Shown here piece after piece: positions 55,782 to 64,000 of a stretch of 64,000 nucleotides of DNA. Made by a program: the position numbers and the translations under genes. How positions within the stretch are numbered: the first letter of the stretch is position 1; every line of letters begins with the position of its first letter. This DNA is from Victivallales bacterium. Its GTDB lineage: Bacteria; Verrucomicrobiota; Lentisphaeria; Victivallales; UBA1829. The notes under the pieces were generated by a model. The model worked only from the letters and a program-made list of their open reading frames with translations, was not told where the DNA came from and searched no databases. The stretch spans positions 123,865-187,864 of the forward strand of contig JAEEQN010000001.1 in assembly GCA_016285345.1 (NCBI GenBank). Direction: 5' to 3'.

Positions 55782-56096
55782 ATGGCGAAAAAAACTGCAA
55801 TCGTACTGCCGAAGACGGAGGAACTCCTGCGTACCTTCGGCGAAAACATTCGTCTGGCGCGCCTGCGCCGGAATATCACGGCGAAACTTGAGGCGGAACG
55901 AGCAGGGATCAGTATCGTGACGCTCGCAAAGATCGAGAATGGCGCACCGACCGTGGCGATAGGGCATTACATGCAAGTTCTCCTGACGCTGGGGCTGGAA
56001 CGTGACATCCTGAAGGTCGCCGCGGACGATGAACTTGGACGGAAGCTTCAGGATATCGGGTTGTCCGTCCGCAGACGCGCATCGAAACGGAGCTGA
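55782..56096 (+). CDS. hipB: HipB-like antitoxin (XRE helix-turn-helix)
   Basis: 104 residues with a GGAGG ribosome site 5 nt before the ATG. The HTH reads RLARLRRNITAKLEAERAGI and continues SIVTLAKIENGAPTVA, an XRE-type fold. It should bind the operator at 55692-55749 and neutralise HipA. The C-terminal tail is basic (RRRASKRS). It ends 2 nt before hipA, the usual coupled order. Confidence 0.88.
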   Translation: MAKKTAIVLPKTEELLRTFGENIRLARLRRNITAKLEAERAGISIVTLAKIENGAPTVAIGHYMQVLLTLGLERDILKVAADDELGRKLQDIGLSVRRRASKRS

Positions 56097-56098
56097 GT

Positions 56099-57355
56099 AT
56101 GAACACAGGCAAGACTATTTACGTTTACTTCGATCATCGGTCCGCGCGACGGGCGCCTGTTCTGCTCGGCATACTCACGGCGCAGCAGGTCCGGGGCAAG
56201 GAAGTCTTTTCGTTCGAGTTCAGCAAAGACTGGCTGAGGGAACATCCTGGTCAGGCACTTGATCCCGATTTACAGTTGTACGCCGGACCTCAATTCACCA
56301 TGAAACCGAACTTCGGACTCTTCATGGATTCTGCACCGGATCGCTGGGGGCGGAAGCTCATGCAGCGTCGGGAGGCATATCGGGCCCGCCGAGAGGGAGA
56401 ATCGCCGAGGATTCTGATGGAATCCGATTACCTGCTGGGCGTTCATGATGAAGCCCGCATGGGGGCATTGCGCTTCAAAACGAATCCCGACGGGCATTTC
56501 CTGAACGACGATCAGGCTATGGCGGCTCCGCCGTGGGCTCGTTTGCGCGAACTCGAGGAGGCGAGCAGACACGTCGACGATGACAGCGCGGATTCCGAAC
56601 GCGAAAAATGGCTTGCGATGCTGATCGCGCCCGGCTCGTCGTTGGGCGGAGCTCGACCGAAAGCCTGCATTTCTGCTCAGGATGGATCGCAGTGGATCGC
56701 CAAGTTCCCCAGCCACAAGGATACCTCGAATATGTCTGCGTGGGAATACGCGGTCATGCGGATGGCGCGTGATGCGGGTTTGAATGTGCCGGAAATCAAA
56801 TTGGAACACTTTTCCAAGTATGGTTCGACCTTCCTGACCAAACGTTTTGACCGGAATGGTTACGAACGGATTCATTTCGCCTCGGCAATGACACTGCTTG
56901 GCAAAACAGACGGAGCCGACGCCCAGCAGGGCGAAAGCTATCTTGAGCTTGCGGAATTCATCATGCGCTACGGAGCCAGACCAGGCGCCGATTTGCACGA
57001 ACTCTGGCGACGCATCGTTTTCTCCATTGCGGTATCCAACACGGACGACCATCTGCGCAACCACGGTTTTCTGCTGGCGGAATCTGGTTGGAACCTTTCA
57101 CCCGCCTACGACATCAACCCGAATTCGCAGGGACACGGTCTCTCGTTGAACATAACTGACACGGACAACTCCCTTGACTTTGAACTTGCGATGGAGGTCG
57201 CGCTTTTTTTCAGAATCAGTGCCCTCGAGGCGAAGAAGATTCTTAATAAGGTCGGTTCCACCGTTTCAAAGTGGCGGCGTTACGCAACTGGTGCAGGAAT
57301 CGGCCATGCCGAACAGGAGGAAATGGAACCCGCATTCCGAGTGCCGGGGCATTAG
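56099..57355 (+). CDS. hipA: HipA-like serine/threonine kinase toxin
   Basis: 418 residues, full HipA length. The N-terminal subdomain has LLGILTAQQVRGKEVFSFEF. The ATP loop is PGSSLGGARPKAC. The catalytic Asp is in SIAVSNTDDHLRNHGFLL, and the Mg-binding motif is LSPAYDINPN. All key residues are present. In E. coli HipA phosphorylates glutamyl-tRNA synthetase and causes persistence; the target here is unknown. It is followed at once by an IS3 element, and has a higher GC content than the polysaccharide genes. Confidence 0.9.
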   Translation: MNTGKTIYVYFDHRSARRAPVLLGILTAQQVRGKEVFSFEFSKDWLREHPGQALDPDLQLYAGPQFTMKPNFGLFMDSAPDRWGRKLMQRREAYRARREGESPRILMESDYLLGVHDEARMGALRFKTNPDGHFLNDDQAMAAPPWARLRELEEASRHVDDDSADSEREKWLAMLIAPGSSLGGARPKACISAQDGSQWIAKFPSHKDTSNMSAWEYAVMRMARDAGLNVPEIKLEHFSKYGSTFLTKRFDRNGYERIHFASAMTLLGKTDGADAQQGESYLELAEFIMRYGARPGADLHELWRRIVFSIAVSNTDDHLRNHGFLLAESGWNLSPAYDINPNSQGHGLSLNITDTDNSLDFELAMEVALFFRISALEAKKILNKVGSTVSKWRRYATGAGIGHAEQEEMEPAFRVPGH

Positions 57356-57428: not shown

Positions 57429-58559
57429 ATGAAGACTGAACAGGAGAAGGCCGAACTTGTTGCTTTGTATCGTGCGGGAACGCCTGTCAATGTCTTATGC
57501 GAAAGATTTGGTATTTGCAAGAGCACGGCATACAATTGGATTCAAAAGTTTTCTCCAATCAAACGCGCATCGTGCGTACGTACGGTCACTCCGGATAGTT
57601 ATTACCGCCTCGAACGGGAAATGCAAACGCTTCGGACAGAAAATGAGATCATTCGACGAAGTGGTTTCCTGCTGGGCATTCCATTGGGAGCAAAGATAGA
57701 GACAATCGACCGACTGAAATCAGATTTCTCGGTTTATATCCTGTGCAAGACTCTCGGCGTGTTGAAATCGACCTACTATCATCATAAATTGCGCAGTCCT
57801 GTTCGAAAATGGTATGAACTCAACAACGATAAACTTCGTCCCCTCGTGAAGGAAATATTTGACGAAAGTCGGGAGCGTTTTGGGGCGCGGAAAATCAAAC
57901 ATGCCCTCAACAAACAGGGATATGTGGTCAGCGAGGCACATGTCTCTCACCTGATGAAAGAAATGAATCTGGTCTGCAAGCAGGTGCGAGTCCGTTATTT
58001 TTCAACGACTAATCGGAAGTACAAGTATTATCGCAACAAAGTCCAACGCAAATTTGAGACCGAGGCTCCGAATCTTGTCTGGGTGAGCGATTTCACAAGT
58101 GTTTATGTCAAAGATGCCCCTTACTCCATAGCGGTGATCATTGACTTGTATGCACGTATGGTCGTTGCGTACGATGTCATGGCGAACGCGACAGCGAAAC
58201 GCATGATCGGTCTTTTTGACACCGCATTTGAACAACGCCATCGTCCGGACAACCTGACGTTTCATTCCGATCAGGGAACGCAGTATACCGCATACACATT
58301 CCGCAAACATCTGCGTGATCTCGGCGTGAACCAGTCGTTTTCAAATCCGGGAACGCCATTGGACAATGCAGTCGCAGAGTCCTTTTTCTCATGCATGAAA
58401 CGGGAAGAGCTCTCCCATAACTACTATGACTCGGTCGATGATTTGAGGCGGGATGTTGCGGATTATGTGGTCTTTTTCAACAACATGCGCTCACATCGGA
58501 AGTTGGGAATGCTGACTCCATGCGAGGCGGAGCAACAATTCGAGCTCGAAAAAAACTAA
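57429..58559 (+). CDS. IS3-family transposase (single ORF)
   Basis: 376 residues. Residues 1-50 are a helix-turn-helix (VNVLCERFGICKSTAYNWIQ), ~65-85 a leucine-zipper-like stretch, and ~190-370 the rve/DDE integrase core: LVWVSDFTSV (first Asp), FHSDQGTQYTAY (second Asp) and DNAVAESFFSCMKREEL (Glu). HTH and DDE parts are fused without the usual OrfA/OrfB frameshift. All catalytic residues are intact, so it may still be active. Confidence 0.92.
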   Translation: MKTEQEKAELVALYRAGTPVNVLCERFGICKSTAYNWIQKFSPIKRASCVRTVTPDSYYRLEREMQTLRTENEIIRRSGFLLGIPLGAKIETIDRLKSDFSVYILCKTLGVLKSTYYHHKLRSPVRKWYELNNDKLRPLVKEIFDESRERFGARKIKHALNKQGYVVSEAHVSHLMKEMNLVCKQVRVRYFSTTNRKYKYYRNKVQRKFETEAPNLVWVSDFTSVYVKDAPYSIAVIIDLYARMVVAYDVMANATAKRMIGLFDTAFEQRHRPDNLTFHSDQGTQYTAYTFRKHLRDLGVNQSFSNPGTPLDNAVAESFFSCMKREELSHNYYDSVDDLRRDVADYVVFFNNMRSHRKLGMLTPCEAEQQFELEKN

Positions 58560-59270: not shown

Positions 59271-60344
59271 TCAATCTTCTATCTTAGGAAACTTTTTCTG
59301 TGTCAATTCTTTGTCCCCTTCCTTATAGGTAAAAACGAGTTTTTTTGCCTTGTTTCCCAAATTGTCAAATGTCATCGTCGCCGAGAACGGCGAGATAGAC
59401 AAATCGACATTGGATTCGATGGGCTTTAGAACAACATCGTTTTTATCTGCGTTGGAGGGATAGATTCTTGGGTAAACAGAAGAAAACCAATAACGGATGT
59501 TCTTTGAATCAAATGACATCTGTCCATAAAGTTTGCCTTGATAATAGATGGAGGCATGCAGGATTTCCGAAGCTGCCTCTTCAAAAAGAAAGCTGTACCC
59601 ATTTTTACAATGGATTTCGATTTGATTCTCCCTCTGCACGGATTCGAAGTTTTTCTCCGGTTCAGTACGAAGGGATTTTGGAGAGGAAAACAACAGCCCG
59701 GTCGGAATGTATTGGTCATGCTCCATCAAAGGGATTTCGTTTGTCAGGTATGTCTGCCGCGTCTCTACTTTTGAATCTTTATATAGCTTATTCGTAATAA
59801 AAGATTCATCTTTTTGGGAGCGGATCATAAGCTGGTTGGTGTATCGTACACCATGCATCTTTTGAAACGCCCGAATGACTGGCAGACCAAAAACAAGCCA
59901 TGCATTATAGTCGAAATAATCCACACCCTCTTGTGTTTTTTCTAAATATTTCTCAAAATTGAAAAAAACTTGCTCAAAAACACGTTTTTCTTCCGTTGTG
60001 CCGGGGGTGGAATTCAGATAGATAGAACTCACGAAATCATAGTTCTTATTGGAAAGAATAAGGCAAATAGATCCAATCTCCATTTCCCCTGCTTCTTTTG
60101 CTTTTTGGGGATTCGACAGAATGATACGGAAAAAGAAATCTTTCAAACCATTTTGTCGAATCTCTATGATGTCAGTGCTCTTAACAGAGTCATCAAGAGA
60201 CTCCAACGCAGGAGAAAGGATAACTGCTTCCTCTGGACTGACAACTTTCACCTCGATTCCGGATAGTTTTATTCCAAATAGGAGAAATGAAACGGTTAAA
60301 AACAAGGAGACGGTCTTAGCGGAAATAAAACGAGTCTGGTTCAT
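59271..60344 (-). CDS. Secreted protein of unknown function; possible immunity protein to an Rhs tip
   Basis: 357 residues with an N-terminal signal peptide (about residues 9-30, VSLFLTVSFLLFGIKLSG). The mature part is beta-rich without catalytic motifs. It starts 11 nt after the stop of a short C-terminal fragment (60356-60607) in the same direction. Rhs toxin tips are often followed immediately by their immunity gene, and the main rhs gene is next door, so an immunity role is a reasonable inference and no more. Confidence 0.55.
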   Translation of the reverse strand: MNQTRFISAKTVSLFLTVSFLLFGIKLSGIEVKVVSPEEAVILSPALESLDDSVKSTDIIEIRQNGLKDFFFRIILSNPQKAKEAGEMEIGSICLILSNKNYDFVSSIYLNSTPGTTEEKRVFEQVFFNFEKYLEKTQEGVDYFDYNAWLVFGLPVIRAFQKMHGVRYTNQLMIRSQKDESFITNKLYKDSKVETRQTYLTNEIPLMEHDQYIPTGLLFSSPKSLRTEPEKNFESVQRENQIEIHCKNGYSFLFEEAASEILHASIYYQGKLYGQMSFDSKNIRYWFSSVYPRIYPSNADKNDVVLKPIESNVDLSISPFSATMTFDNLGNKAKKLVFTYKEGDKELTQKKFPKIED

Positions 60345-60355
60345 TGTCAGATCCT

Positions 60356-60607
60356 TTAAATAAGTTTTCTTTTACATTTATCATTATGCCCTCCCCAAAA
60401 TTCCCCTATTGCTTCGCTACAAGCACACGAATTATTAAGATTACTTAAATCGTCTATAGCTCGCCGGAAATTGTCTAAAGCCAAATCAGAATATAATTGA
60501 ATATTAGTTGTTGCTGACAACACTGCCTCATAGGCATCATGATAAAATGTCATGAAAGGGGTAAGTGGTTTTGGCGAGACTTTCTGTGCGAGTGCGGTGT
60601 ACCCCAT
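60356..60607 (-). pseudogene. Orphan C-terminal fragment, cut by an IS3 insertion
   Basis: 83 codons ending CACSEAIGEFWGGHNDKCKR. The 5' side runs straight into the end of the IS3 element at about 60612, so the start shown (60607) is probably not a real one. Position between an Rhs gene and a secreted protein suggests a displaced Rhs toxin tip. No toxin family recognised. Confidence 0.45.
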
Positions 60608-60742: not shown

Positions 60743-61630
60743 CTAATATACATCCTCCTTGTTTTGATTGCAAGTGTTTGTTTTCTTTTTTTGCAATAAA
60801 AGTGCGGCTCTGTTGTGAAGGCCTTCTTCATAGACGGCATCCGGTGTCCGGTAGTTCAAGGCCGAATGAAGTTGAACTCCGTTGTAAAAGTTCACATATC
60901 CTTGGACTCCTCTGCGGAGCTGAGGCAGGGACTTGTACTCCTTGATCAGAAGGTCTTCGTACTTCAGGGACCACCAGAACCGTTCCATTTTGGCGTTGTC
61001 ATGGCATCTGCCGCGTCCATCCATGCTGATCTTGACTCCATACTCCTTGAGTACGTCCGTGAACTCCTTGCTGGTGAATTGGCTTCCTTGATCCGAGTTG
61101 AATATCTCGGGAATGCCGTATCTGGTCATGGCGAGCAGCAGAGTCTCGATGCAGGAGTATGCGTCCATTGTATTTACGACGTTGTAGGCCAGGTTCTTTC
61201 GGCTGTAGAGGTCTATGATGGCGATTACAAAGGCTCTGCATCCTGAAACCTTGGTGTAGGTGATGTCGGTCGTCCAAACCTGGTTCGAATGGTCTATCCT
61301 CAAATCTCGTAAGAGATAGGGATAGACCTTGTGCCCCGGATGAGGTTTCGATGTGGATAAGTGCGGTCGTGGATAGACCGTACGCAAGCCCGTTGCCTTG
61401 TGCAGACGACGAACGCGCTTGTGATTGACCGTGTAACCCTTTTGGCGGAGTTCGGCCGTTATCCGGCGAATTCCGTAAAAAGGCTTGTCCATGTAGATGT
61501 TCATGATTTCGTCCTTGACGTTTTGATTCTTGCGCTGTTGTTCAGGGCTGTGCTGCGGCTGGTAGTAATAGCTCGAACGCGGCACATGGAGCAACTCCAA
61601 TTGTCTCCTGACGCTCAAATCCTTGCACAA
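60743..61630 (-). CDS. IS3-family transposase OrfB
   Basis: 295 residues, start annotated at TTG 61630. The integrase core is intact: QVWTTDITYTKVSG (first Asp), IFNSDQGSQFTSKEF (second Asp), and GRCHDNAKMERFWWSLKYE (Glu). The N-terminal HTH_21 region has FYGIRRITAELRQKGYTVNH. It is in the -1 frame relative to orfA and is probably made mostly as an OrfAB fusion by ribosomal frameshifting, as in other IS3 elements; I see no textbook A6G heptamer. Confidence 0.93.
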   Translation of the reverse strand: MCKDLSVRRQLELLHVPRSSYYYQPQHSPEQQRKNQNVKDEIMNIYMDKPFYGIRRITAELRQKGYTVNHKRVRRLHKATGLRTVYPRPHLSTSKPHPGHKVYPYLLRDLRIDHSNQVWTTDITYTKVSGCRAFVIAIIDLYSRKNLAYNVVNTMDAYSCIETLLLAMTRYGIPEIFNSDQGSQFTSKEFTDVLKEYGVKISMDGRGRCHDNAKMERFWWSLKYEDLLIKEYKSLPQLRRGVQGYVNFYNGVQLHSALNYRTPDAVYEEGLHNRAALLLQKKKTNTCNQNKEDVY

Positions 61631-61635
61631 CGGAT

Positions 61636-61941
61636 TTATTTGGGCTTTTCGATGTTCAAGCCCAACGCCAAGGACACACTTCGCAAAAAGTCGTTCTCCA
61701 CCTCAAGACGTCCGATTTTCTTCATCAAATCGTCCTCCGTGTACATCTTCTTCTGCTCGGCCTTCCGTTCCGAAGGCCACATGAAGAGTTCCGAGGCGCC
61801 TTCCTGGAGACGTTTCTTCCAGTTTTGAACTTGATTCGGGTGAACCTGATACTTGCTGGCGATCTCCGCAATCGTCAGTTCTCCTCGCATTGCCTCAAGT
61901 GCAACACGACTCTTGAATTTGCTGTCATAGCTTTTTCGCAT
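61636..61941 (-). CDS. IS3-family transposase OrfA
   Basis: 101 residues with an N-terminal helix-turn-helix (LTIAEIASKYQVHPNQVQNW) and a C-terminal leucine-zipper-like region (DDLMKKIGRLEVENDFLRS). It binds the inverted ends of the element and, alone, usually acts as a regulator. It ends 5 nt before the OrfB start in the other frame. Confidence 0.93.
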   Translation of the reverse strand: MRKSYDSKFKSRVALEAMRGELTIAEIASKYQVHPNQVQNWKKRLQEGASELFMWPSERKAEQKKMYTEDDLMKKIGRLEVENDFLRSVSLALGLNIEKPK

Positions 61942-62036: not shown

Positions 62037-64000
62037 TCAATCTTCTTTTGAAGATTGGTTCAACTGATAAATATAGATCTTCTTATCATAACAATAAGCC
62101 AAATATTTGCCATTTTGGGAAAATGCAATGTTATCTGGAGTGAATCTTTTAGGAGAAAAGCACATATTAGGCGTAATGCGTTTATTGACAAATATTATAT
62201 TTTTATCAAAATGATATAACAGCAAACGTGTTTCCCCCGTAAGTCTCATACGTGTCCCAATCGAGATAATCATTCCAACCGTATTTCTATCTAAAAAACA
62301 AAGACCTTCATACCTATATGGAGCAAGTAATTGAAATTTAAATTTGGCTTCATTTTTTGAGAAACCGTTGTCATCGGGAAAAAAAGACAATAAAGGAGGC
62401 AATGTAAGACGATTTTCTTTGACCTTTTTTTGCCAATCCTCTTTCGGAATAAAAATAGTGGTAGCAAAATCAATATCATCTATTTTGTTTTCACTAACAA
62501 TGTTATCTAAAAACTCTGATAAATATATTTGATGTACAAAAACGTTACTGACAATCTTAATCGTTTTAATTAGACTTTTATCTTTGGAGTCATATATCAT
62601 CCATTGTCCATCATCCTCTATAAGAAGATACGGAAATACCGAATCGCTTCTGAAAATACACTCACATCTTCGATCTTTTCCAAGCGGCATACTCCATACC
62701 ACCTCATACCCAGTTGTATTTTTTTTCTTCAAAATTATATTTGAAGAATAGCCAAAGAACCATAAATCAGTTTTATCCACCTGATGCTCTCCGTAGTCAT
62801 CTTTCTTATATAACTGGCATTCCGTCACGAACTTCACTTTGTTAATGAGTTTTGGAACACCGGTAGGAACTCTATTGTTGATTTTGTTGATTTTCTGAGA
62901 AGCAATATTATACTCTTGATATTTCACTTTATTCTCATCATCTATAAAACACAAAATCAAACTTTTCTCCATTTCATCAAAGCTCATATATGTGGGATTT
63001 GACTCTATTGTTTTAACTAATTTCATTTCAATCTCGTTTGCATTTAAGTTATAAGATAAGGTCAATAACCACAATACAACTATCACCACATTTAACATAT
63101 TTTTATATACACATTTACATTTTTTAATCCATTTGTTAAGATATATAACTAGTTTATTGCGAGTAAAAATCATCGCTTGATTACGCCTGTTGGCAGCATC
63201 TGTAGCTCTATCTCCTGGTTCTACATGTGAGAATGGATTAATAATCCTAAAGAATCCACCGTGACCACCTCTAAATCCCATAAGGCCAAAGGTTACAGGC
63301 AAATATGTGAAATCAATGGCATCGGGAGAACCTCGCAACGTCCCAACTTGTGCACCAAACCAACTATCATCTCGTTCAACTCCGTGTGCATAGTAGTCTT
63401 GCCACATATGAGTCAACAATCCCAAAGTTTCTAATGCATCAATACATTTACTTTCATCAAGATATCCTTTTTGATTGAGTATTTTATTTAGGTCACCAAC
63501 GTTAGATGCAAGAGTAGCTTTATATTTTTCAATTGCCTGTAAATGTGTCCAATTCATTTGTGAACAATAATGATATTCTTGTTGTTTTCCAGTTTCACCG
63601 CTATCTGTATTAACATTAGACGCTATGACTATTGATATTAATTGTTCTTTAATTTTACCAATTACAATTATATCGCAATTATTCGACCTAGATATTTCAA
63701 TTAAGCGAATTGAACTAAAAGCTGACCTTGTAATATTTCTGTGAGTTTCTCCCAACCATAGTCCCAGGTGGTCATATTTTTCAATGCAATTATTTTGACA
63801 AAATAAATATAAGTTTATTGAATTCAACTCTTGGGATGGGTCACGGGAAAGCCATCTGCCAAGTTCAGGGGAGTAATACCGATAATTGTAGTAGACGAGT
63901 CCGAGGTCGGCATCGAATTGTTCCGAGGAGAACCGAATTGGATTGTTTGCGGCGATCGTCCCGGAGGAAGAGATAATCTGCCCGGACGGACCGTAGAGAT
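62037..64000 (-). CDS. rhs: Rhs-family protein, C-terminal part with toxin-like tip and fused secreted domain (5' end off window)
   Basis: The frame is open to the right edge; the track start at 63827 is internal. The first visible residues are the Rhs core end (FDADLGLVYYNYRYYSPELG then RWLSRDPS). The variable tip contains LGLLTHMWQDYYAHGVERDD, whose HxxQDxxAH pattern resembles zinc-dependent phospholipase C-like domains. From about 63092 the frame continues into a hydrophobic, signal-peptide-like stretch (MLNVVIVVLWLLTLSYNLNA) and a ~340-residue beta-propeller-like region (last repeat NIAFSQNGKYLAYCYDKKIY). The second part may be a separate immunity-type protein fused in frame. No stop separates them. 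Confidence 0.8.
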   Translation of the reverse strand, partial: LYGPSGQIISSSGTIAANNPIRFSSEQFDADLGLVYYNYRYYSPELGRWLSRDPSQELNSINLYLFCQNNCIEKYDHLGLWLGETHRNITRSAFSSIRLIEISRSNNCDIIVIGKIKEQLISIVIASNVNTDSGETGKQQEYHYCSQMNWTHLQAIEKYKATLASNVGDLNKILNQKGYLDESKCIDALETLGLLTHMWQDYYAHGVERDDSWFGAQVGTLRGSPDAIDFTYLPVTFGLMGFRGGHGGFFRIINPFSHVEPGDRATDAANRRNQAMIFTRNKLVIYLNKWIKKCKCVYKNMLNVVIVVLWLLTLSYNLNANEIEMKLVKTIESNPTYMSFDEMEKSLILCFIDDENKVKYQEYNIASQKINKINNRVPTGVPKLINKVKFVTECQLYKKDDYGEHQVDKTDLWFFGYSSNIILKKKNTTGYEVVWSMPLGKDRRCECIFRSDSVFPYLLIEDDGQWMIYDSKDKSLIKTIKIVSNVFVHQIYLSEFLDNIVSENKIDDIDFATTIFIPKEDWQKKVKENRLTLPPLLSFFPDDNGFSKNEAKFKFQLLAPYRYEGLCFLDRNTVGMIISIGTRMRLTGETRLLLYHFDKNIIFVNKRITPNMCFSPKRFTPDNIAFSQNGKYLAYCYDKKIYIYQLNQSSKED

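What the first reader, a model, noticed from the sequence alone, without database searches (positions are those of the whole stretch)
62037..64000. Rhs tip with HxxQDxxAH motif fused in frame to a second, signal-peptide-like beta-propeller part
The Rhs core ends and a variable tip follows with HMWQDYYAHG, a pattern seen in zinc-dependent phospholipase C-like domains; I know of no such Rhs tip by name. Without any stop, the frame then enters a hydrophobic signal-like segment and ~340 residues of repeat structure, which would normally be a separate exported protein. A toxin and its immunity protein may have become fused, or the stop may have been lost.
Basis: partly seen in the sequence, partly recalled or inferred. 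Interest (0 to 1): 0.6.

Follow-up and report, generated by a model that had tools for sequence, protein, structure and literature searches.

The report
Rhs metal-hydrolase toxin fused to immunity gene
The sequence is the end of a bacterial competition toxin (Rhs) whose tip looks like a zinc-dependent phospholipase or nuclease, with the next gene, its probable exported antidote, running on in the same frame because the usual stop is missing; in relatives these are two genes, and the tip starts with a tryptophan that the Rhs protein's own self-cleavage should expose, which may switch the enzyme on.

Summary
One frame (62037-63998, minus strand) runs without a stop from the end of an Rhs core, through a 220-aa low-GC tip with HMWQDYYAHG, into a signal-like segment and a propeller-like 353-aa part. 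It runs off the contig end, so the front of the Rhs protein is not seen.

Relatives settle the anatomy. The tip occurs in Akkermansia, Lentisphaerae and Opitutales Rhs genes. In nine relatives with the CxC end, the toxin frame stops 4-15 codons after CxC. A separate gene follows, usually a signal-peptide propeller, a lipoprotein or a membrane protein, often overlapping the stop. The window alone is fused, so this is a toxin and immunity pair whose stop was lost (recent event or assembly error), not an integral two-domain protein.

The tip lies near the Het-C / zinc phospholipase C / S1-P1 superfamily (Tox-HET-C), though profile scores are weak. The new point: all 11 intact tips of this type begin with Trp exactly where Rhs self-cleavage should cut, against 1 of 49 other Rhs tips. 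S1/P1 nucleases and PLCs use an N-terminal Trp in the metal site. Rhs self-cleavage may therefore complete the active site, as propeptide removal does in pro-PLC. This is untested.

The parts
63759..63998 (-). C-terminal end of the Rhs core, with RYYSPELGRWLSRDP...YDHLGL; predicted self-cleavage after this Leu; continues beyond the contig end
   Evidence: Residues 1-80; the same core end found in 183 of 289 genomes of the phylum; cleavage after the Leu of DPLGL shown in P. laumondii Rhs1 (PMC8636562)
63099..63758 (-). Toxin tip, Het-C / zinc-PLC / S1-P1-like, residues 81-300, beginning W-x4-H
   Evidence: Relatives; alignment A6 invariants W,H,T,D,H,A,L,G,H,Q,D,A,H; Pfam VWA7_N in 8 of 9 tips, best 2e-4; Het-C at cut-off and Zn_dep_PLPC weakly in divergent members
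63756..63758 (-). Trp81: would become residue 1 after Rhs self-cleavage; predicted metal ligand through its alpha-amino group
   Evidence: Trp at this place in 8/8 HxxxDxxxH tips vs 1/49 other Rhs tips and in 3 further tips
63741..63743 (-). His86, the His of W-x4-H (His6 counted from the predicted new N-terminus)
   Evidence: Invariant in A5 and A6; W-x4-H is also the mature start of S1/P1 homologues of the phylum
63603..63605 (-). Asp132, invariant, predicted metal ligand
63570..63572 (-). His143 (Y/W-H-Y/F), invariant, predicted metal ligand
63384..63410 (-). HMWQDYYAH, HxxxDxxxH metal-binding motif
   Evidence: H, Q, D, A, H invariant in 8 diverse tips; same motif as Tox-HET-C (PMC3482391)
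63111..63119 (-). CxC near the toxin end; relatives stop 4-15 codons after it
62037..63098 (-). Probable immunity part (353 aa): signal-like N-terminus from an in-frame ATG, then a propeller-like repeat protein
   Evidence: Position matches the separate SP + propeller gene of Akkermansia; propeller hits; model pLDDT only 49
60743..61941 (-). IS3-type transposase genes (orfA 61636-61941, orfB 60743-61630) directly beyond the stop of the fused frame
   Evidence: rve and HTH_Tnp_1 Pfam matches

Best explanation
This is the 3' end of an Rhs polymorphic-toxin gene followed by its immunity gene. The tip is a metal-dependent hydrolase near the Het-C / zinc phospholipase C / S1-P1 nuclease superfamily, most likely acting on membrane phospholipids outside the cytoplasm. 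The second part is the cognate exported propeller immunity protein. The normal arrangement is two tightly coupled genes; here the stop between them is missing, so the frame is continuous, either by a recent mutation or by a sequence error. The immunity protein could still be made from its own in-frame ATG. Inferred mechanism: the Rhs cage cuts itself after DxxGL, leaving Trp as residue 1 of the released toxin; that free Trp, with His6, Asp, His and HxxxDxxxH, completes the metal site. The enzyme would be inactive until cleaved. Shown here: two-gene arrangement in relatives, residue conservation, and Trp exactly at the predicted cut site. Inferred: metal binding, lipid substrate, activation by cleavage, immunity function.
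For: Tip relatives in Rhs genes of Akkermansia, Lentisphaerae, Opitutales and others. Nine relatives stop 4-15 codons after CxC, while the window runs on 357. Separate downstream genes often overlap the stop as ATGA and mostly carry a signal peptide, a lipobox or TM segments. Invariant W,H,D,H,HxxxDxxxH over eight tips, the other seven at 19-47% identity to the window's, run in the same order as invariant W1,H6,D45,H58,H111,D115,H121 in S1/P1 proteins of the phylum. Trp at the cut site in 8/8 such tips vs 1/49 others, Fisher 5e-9, plus 3/3 later finds. Published: Rhs cut after Leu (PMC8636562); N-terminal Trp in the zinc site of S1 nuclease (PMC5201275); one residue added before W1 turns a PLC off (PMC10576769).
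Against: Pfam matches of the tips mostly lie below the curated cut-offs. Profile comparison with S1/P1 proteins found nothing, and the structure search found no significant match; an S1/P1 nuclease ranked only 22nd, E 5.5. The last His/Asp pair of the S1/P1 site is not invariant in the tips. No second genome of this species was available to test the fusion. The propeller parts match only blade to blade, so the window's second part is not proven an orthologue of the Akkermansia partner. The four Akkermansia tips in the count are close relatives.
Confidence: 0.7

Rival explanations
1. The continuous frame is an assembly or base-calling error in a metagenome-assembled genome, at an AT-rich junction close to a contig end; the living cell has two normal genes.
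For: Both halves are intact and only the single stop is missing. In two relatives the next gene already lies in the same frame just behind the stop (L129, L130). The genome is a 66-contig assembly, 83% complete.
Against: No sign of error elsewhere in this 1.96-kb frame; no reads could be examined.
Confidence: 0.35
2. A true, selected fusion: the Rhs protein carries its own antidote as a C-terminal domain, making a self-neutralised or tethered toxin.
For: The frame is open throughout in this genome, with no decay in either half.
Against: No relative has it. The second part starts with a signal-like segment that would sit inside the protein. It is the longest extension among 57 Rhs tips, and the published Rhs cage encloses its toxin (PMC8636562), so an extra propeller may not fit.
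Confidence: 0.08
3. The tip is a nuclease (S1/P1-like) acting on nucleic acid in the target cell rather than a phospholipase.
For: W-x4-H spacing is identical to that of S1/P1 proteins; Het-C is predicted to be either (PMC3482391).
Against: Partners are mostly exported, lipid-anchored or membrane proteins, pointing to protection in the envelope. Some members match Zn_dep_PLPC weakly, and none matched the S1-P1 Pfam family.
Confidence: 0.25
4. Trp at the tip's start serves only Rhs cleavage or packing and has nothing to do with a metal site.
For: Trp, Leu or Phe are found at the cut position of Rhs proteins (PMC8765631); one non-HxxxDxxxH tip also has Trp there (L102).
Against: Here Trp follows the cut and is nearly absent from 49 other tips that share the same core; it comes with a His five residues on, as in S1/P1.
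Confidence: 0.25

Closest known systems
Tox-HET-C polymorphic toxin domain (Pfam Het-C PF07217 / VWA7_N PF25107)
   Same: HxxxDxxxH motif; weak but repeated VWA7_N matches; one divergent Rhs tip (L130) reaches the Het-C cut-off; mainly helical model
   Different: In the 2012 catalogue it is not listed with RHS repeats or with any immunity family (PMC3482391). These tips lack a conserved Nxx[DE] after the motif and start at a Trp placed at the cleavage site
Zinc-dependent phospholipase C (PF00882), e.g. pro-PLC of Listeria
   Same: N-terminal Trp essential and inactive until the preceding residues are cut off (PMC10576769); ordered His/Asp ligands; PF00882 matches at E 3e-4 (L042) and 0.011 (L003)
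   Different: H-x3-D-x3-H instead of x5; the proposed propeptide is the whole Rhs cage; matches below cut-off
S1/P1 nuclease family (PF02265)
   Same: Mature chain begins W-x4-H in S1/P1 homologues of the same phylum; same order of invariant residues
   Different: No profile match; exposed by signal peptidase rather than Rhs self-cleavage
Rhs polymorphic toxins with self-cleaving cage (P. laumondii Rhs1, P. protegens RhsA)
   Same: Core-end motif DxxGL and variable low-GC tip followed by an immunity gene
   Different: In those, cleavage is known to release the toxin; here it would also create a metal ligand. The Lentisphaerae relative L020 has a Sec-type signal peptide instead of PAAR

Membership tests
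Rhs polymorphic toxin | Conserved Rhs core end with DPxGL-type boundary before a variable tip | tested here: met
   Core end matched in 183 of 289 genomes with many different tips; only the last 80 residues of the core lie in the window
Rhs polymorphic toxin | Full YD-repeat cage and secretion N-terminus | not testable with these tools
   Contig ends inside the gene; no other core piece in the genome
Rhs polymorphic toxin | Immunity gene directly downstream | tested here: met
   A candidate is present, but in frame without a stop; a separate gene in relatives
Tox-HET-C / Het-C | HxxxDxxxH motif | tested here: met
   HMWQDYYAH; H, D and H invariant
Tox-HET-C / Het-C | Profile match above curated cut-off | tested here: inconclusive
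   Window tip VWA7_N E=0.02, best tip 2e-4, all below cut-off; L130 tip meets the Het-C cut-off (21 of 21 bits)
Tox-HET-C / Het-C | Nxx[DE] after the motif | tested here: not met
   Not conserved in A2 or A5
Zinc-dependent PLC / S1-P1 nuclease superfamily | N-terminal Trp after processing, then His, Asp, His, HxxxDx(3-5)H | tested here: met
   Sequence order only; processing itself not tested
Zinc-dependent PLC / S1-P1 nuclease superfamily | Final His-x3-(Asp/Glu) pair | tested here: inconclusive
   HG in most tips with a later Glu/Asp, spacing not constant
Zinc-dependent PLC / S1-P1 nuclease superfamily | Fold similarity | tested here: inconclusive
   Model pLDDT 80, pTM 0.83; no significant Foldseek match, S1/P1 nuclease 4cxv at rank 22, E 5.5; hhalign negative
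Zinc-dependent PLC / S1-P1 nuclease superfamily | Metal content and hydrolase activity | not testable with these tools
   Needs experiment
Beta-propeller immunity protein | Propeller fold | tested here: inconclusive
   Foldseek and Pfam point to a propeller, model pLDDT 49
Beta-propeller immunity protein | Protects against the tip | not testable with these tools
   Inferred from position only

The most novel reading that the evidence does not exclude
A class of Rhs toxins are zymogens in which the cage's self-cleavage does more than release the toxin: it creates the N-terminal Trp that completes the metal site, so the enzyme cannot act in the producer before cleavage. The toxin is paired with exported propeller, lipoprotein or membrane immunity proteins.
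Probability: 0.55. Interest if true: 0.68.

Novelty: new variant of a known kind. Interest (0 to 1): 0.52.

Why it matters
If the Trp proposal is right, Rhs self-cleavage would be an activation step built into the chemistry of the toxin, which would help explain how a producer survives making a membrane-attacking enzyme. It is directly testable with one tryptophan. It also ties Het-C-like toxins to Rhs cages and gives them candidate immunity partners in gut bacteria such as Akkermansia. The fusion itself matters little unless confirmed in reads; it shows how close toxin and immunity genes sit.

Tried and rejected
An integral two-domain protein was rejected because all relatives with an intact end have two ORFs. 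Looking for the missing Rhs front elsewhere in the genome gave only the window piece. Plasmid, phage and viral-contig searches with the tip or the second part gave no relatives. Profile-profile comparison with S1/P1 proteins gave no match, and the PDB sequence searches gave nothing. NCBIfam, PADLOC and PHROGs gave no match better than chance level, E 0.04-0.08. No paper in the library linked Rhs, phospholipase C and an N-terminal Trp; the library holds only open-licence papers. The search for terminal inverted repeats of the IS element found no pair that framed it.

Full report
What is there. The window is the end of a contig (G000:C58, 187,864 bases) of an 83% complete, 66-contig genome. A genome of the same order (G063) has a contig that matches, in length and place of the hit, a record named uncultured Lentisphaerae bacterium (L003 and L019), so the window is from the Verrucomicrobiota/Lentisphaerota group. 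On the minus strand one frame is open from the contig edge to 62037. Residues 1-80 are the end of an Rhs core, residues 81-300 a low-GC tip with HMWQDYYAHG, and from residue 301 an ATG begins a signal-like segment and a propeller-like part.

Relatives have two genes. The tip is found in Akkermansia (complete Rhs frames of 1892-2139 aa), in Lentisphaerae, in Opitutales and in others. In nine relatives with the CxC end the frame stops 4-15 codons after CxC. In the window it runs 357 codons further, and the ATG of the second part comes four codons after CxC, where the others stop. In Akkermansia the next gene encodes a signal peptide and a propeller-like protein of about 340 aa; its start often overlaps the stop as ATGA. 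In other relatives the next gene is a lipoprotein or a membrane protein (L003, L011, L013, L021, L042, L129); in L130 it is a protein without an evident signal, and in L128 its start was not inspected. In L129 and L130 the next gene is in the same frame behind a single stop, so loss of one stop alone gives the window's arrangement. The window's frame is therefore a stop loss or a sequence error in a toxin and immunity pair. The window's propeller part and the Akkermansia ones match blade to blade only; same place and same fold type, not proven orthology.

What the tip is. Single tips match Pfam VWA7_N (8 of 9, best 2e-4), Zn_dep_PLPC (3e-4 for L042, 0.011 for L003), DUF6765 and Het-C (L130, at the cut-off). 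VWA7 appears to be the vertebrate MHC class III protein that PMC3482391 calls the animal version of Het-C (that VWA7 is this protein is my own knowledge). That paper names the toxin domain Tox-HET-C, with HxxxDxxxH, and predicts kinship with zinc phospholipase C and S1-P1 nuclease. Across eight tips, seven of them at 19-47% identity to the window's, the invariant residues are W, H, T, D, H, A, L, G, H, Q, D, A, H. In S1/P1 proteins taken from the same phylum the invariant residues include W1, H6, D45, H58, H111, D115, H121. The order agrees, and so does W-x4-H, which is the predicted mature start after the signal peptide in those proteins. Against this, the profile comparison found nothing and the tip model, though fairly confident, had no significant structural match. 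I take the kinship as likely but not shown.

The tryptophan. Rhs1 of Photorhabdus laumondii cuts itself after the Leu of its second DPLGL motif (PMC8636562). At the same place the window reads DHLGL, then W. In 57 distinct Rhs ends from the phylum, all 8 tips with HxxxDxxxH have Trp as the first residue after the cut, and 1 of 49 others does (Fisher 5e-9). Four of the eight are close Akkermansia relatives; counted once, the contrast is still 5 of 5. Seven of the eight have W-x4-H; L011 has W-x2-H. Three members found later also have W-x4-H there, though the profile that found them contained the Trp column. In S1 nuclease the zinc cluster involves the N-terminal Trp (PMC5201275), and in Listeria PLC W1 is essential, the proenzyme is inactive, and one residue before W1 turns activity off (PMC10576769). 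I infer that Rhs self-cleavage exposes this Trp and completes the site. Nothing here tests that.

Where it acts. Most partners are exported, lipid-anchored or membrane-embedded. An immunity protein in the envelope fits a toxin acting there, so phospholipids are the more likely substrate. A Lentisphaerae Rhs (L020) begins with a Sec-type signal peptide. These are inferences.

Verdict. A new variant of a known kind: Rhs toxin tips near Tox-HET-C, with candidate immunity families and a possible activation by self-cleavage. The fusion itself is probably stop loss or error.

Noticed in passing
window 59271-60607, minus strand: A small ORF ending CACSEAIGEFWGGHNDKCKRKLI (60356-60607) is followed about 12 bases on by a 357-aa protein with a signal-like N-terminus (59271-60344, no Pfam match); it looks like another leftover toxin end with its immunity gene.
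   Followed up: partly
window 60743-61941 and 57429-58559: IS3-type transposase genes beside the locus (Pfam for the first pair; the second read from its sequence only); the first lies directly behind the fused frame.
   Followed up: partly
window 55782-57355: A helix-turn-helix gene and a HipA-like gene in tandem, probably a HipBA toxin-antitoxin pair (read from sequence, not searched).
   Followed up: no
L004 / L013 (G041:C81): Three related small exported proteins in a row, one directly behind a fragment of this tip's end (another short fragment lies upstream), then a stray Rhs piece: an array of orphan immunity genes.
   Followed up: partly
L016 / L030 (G203:C12, Akkermansia): A decayed copy of the tip (stops and shifts) followed by an intact propeller gene: immunity kept after toxin loss.
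   Followed up: partly
L042, L128, L129, L130: Divergent Rhs tips with WGSDVH-type starts and LHPLQDxxAH motifs that match DUF6765, Het-C and PF00882 weakly; a wider Rhs metal-hydrolase group than the one given.
   Followed up: partly
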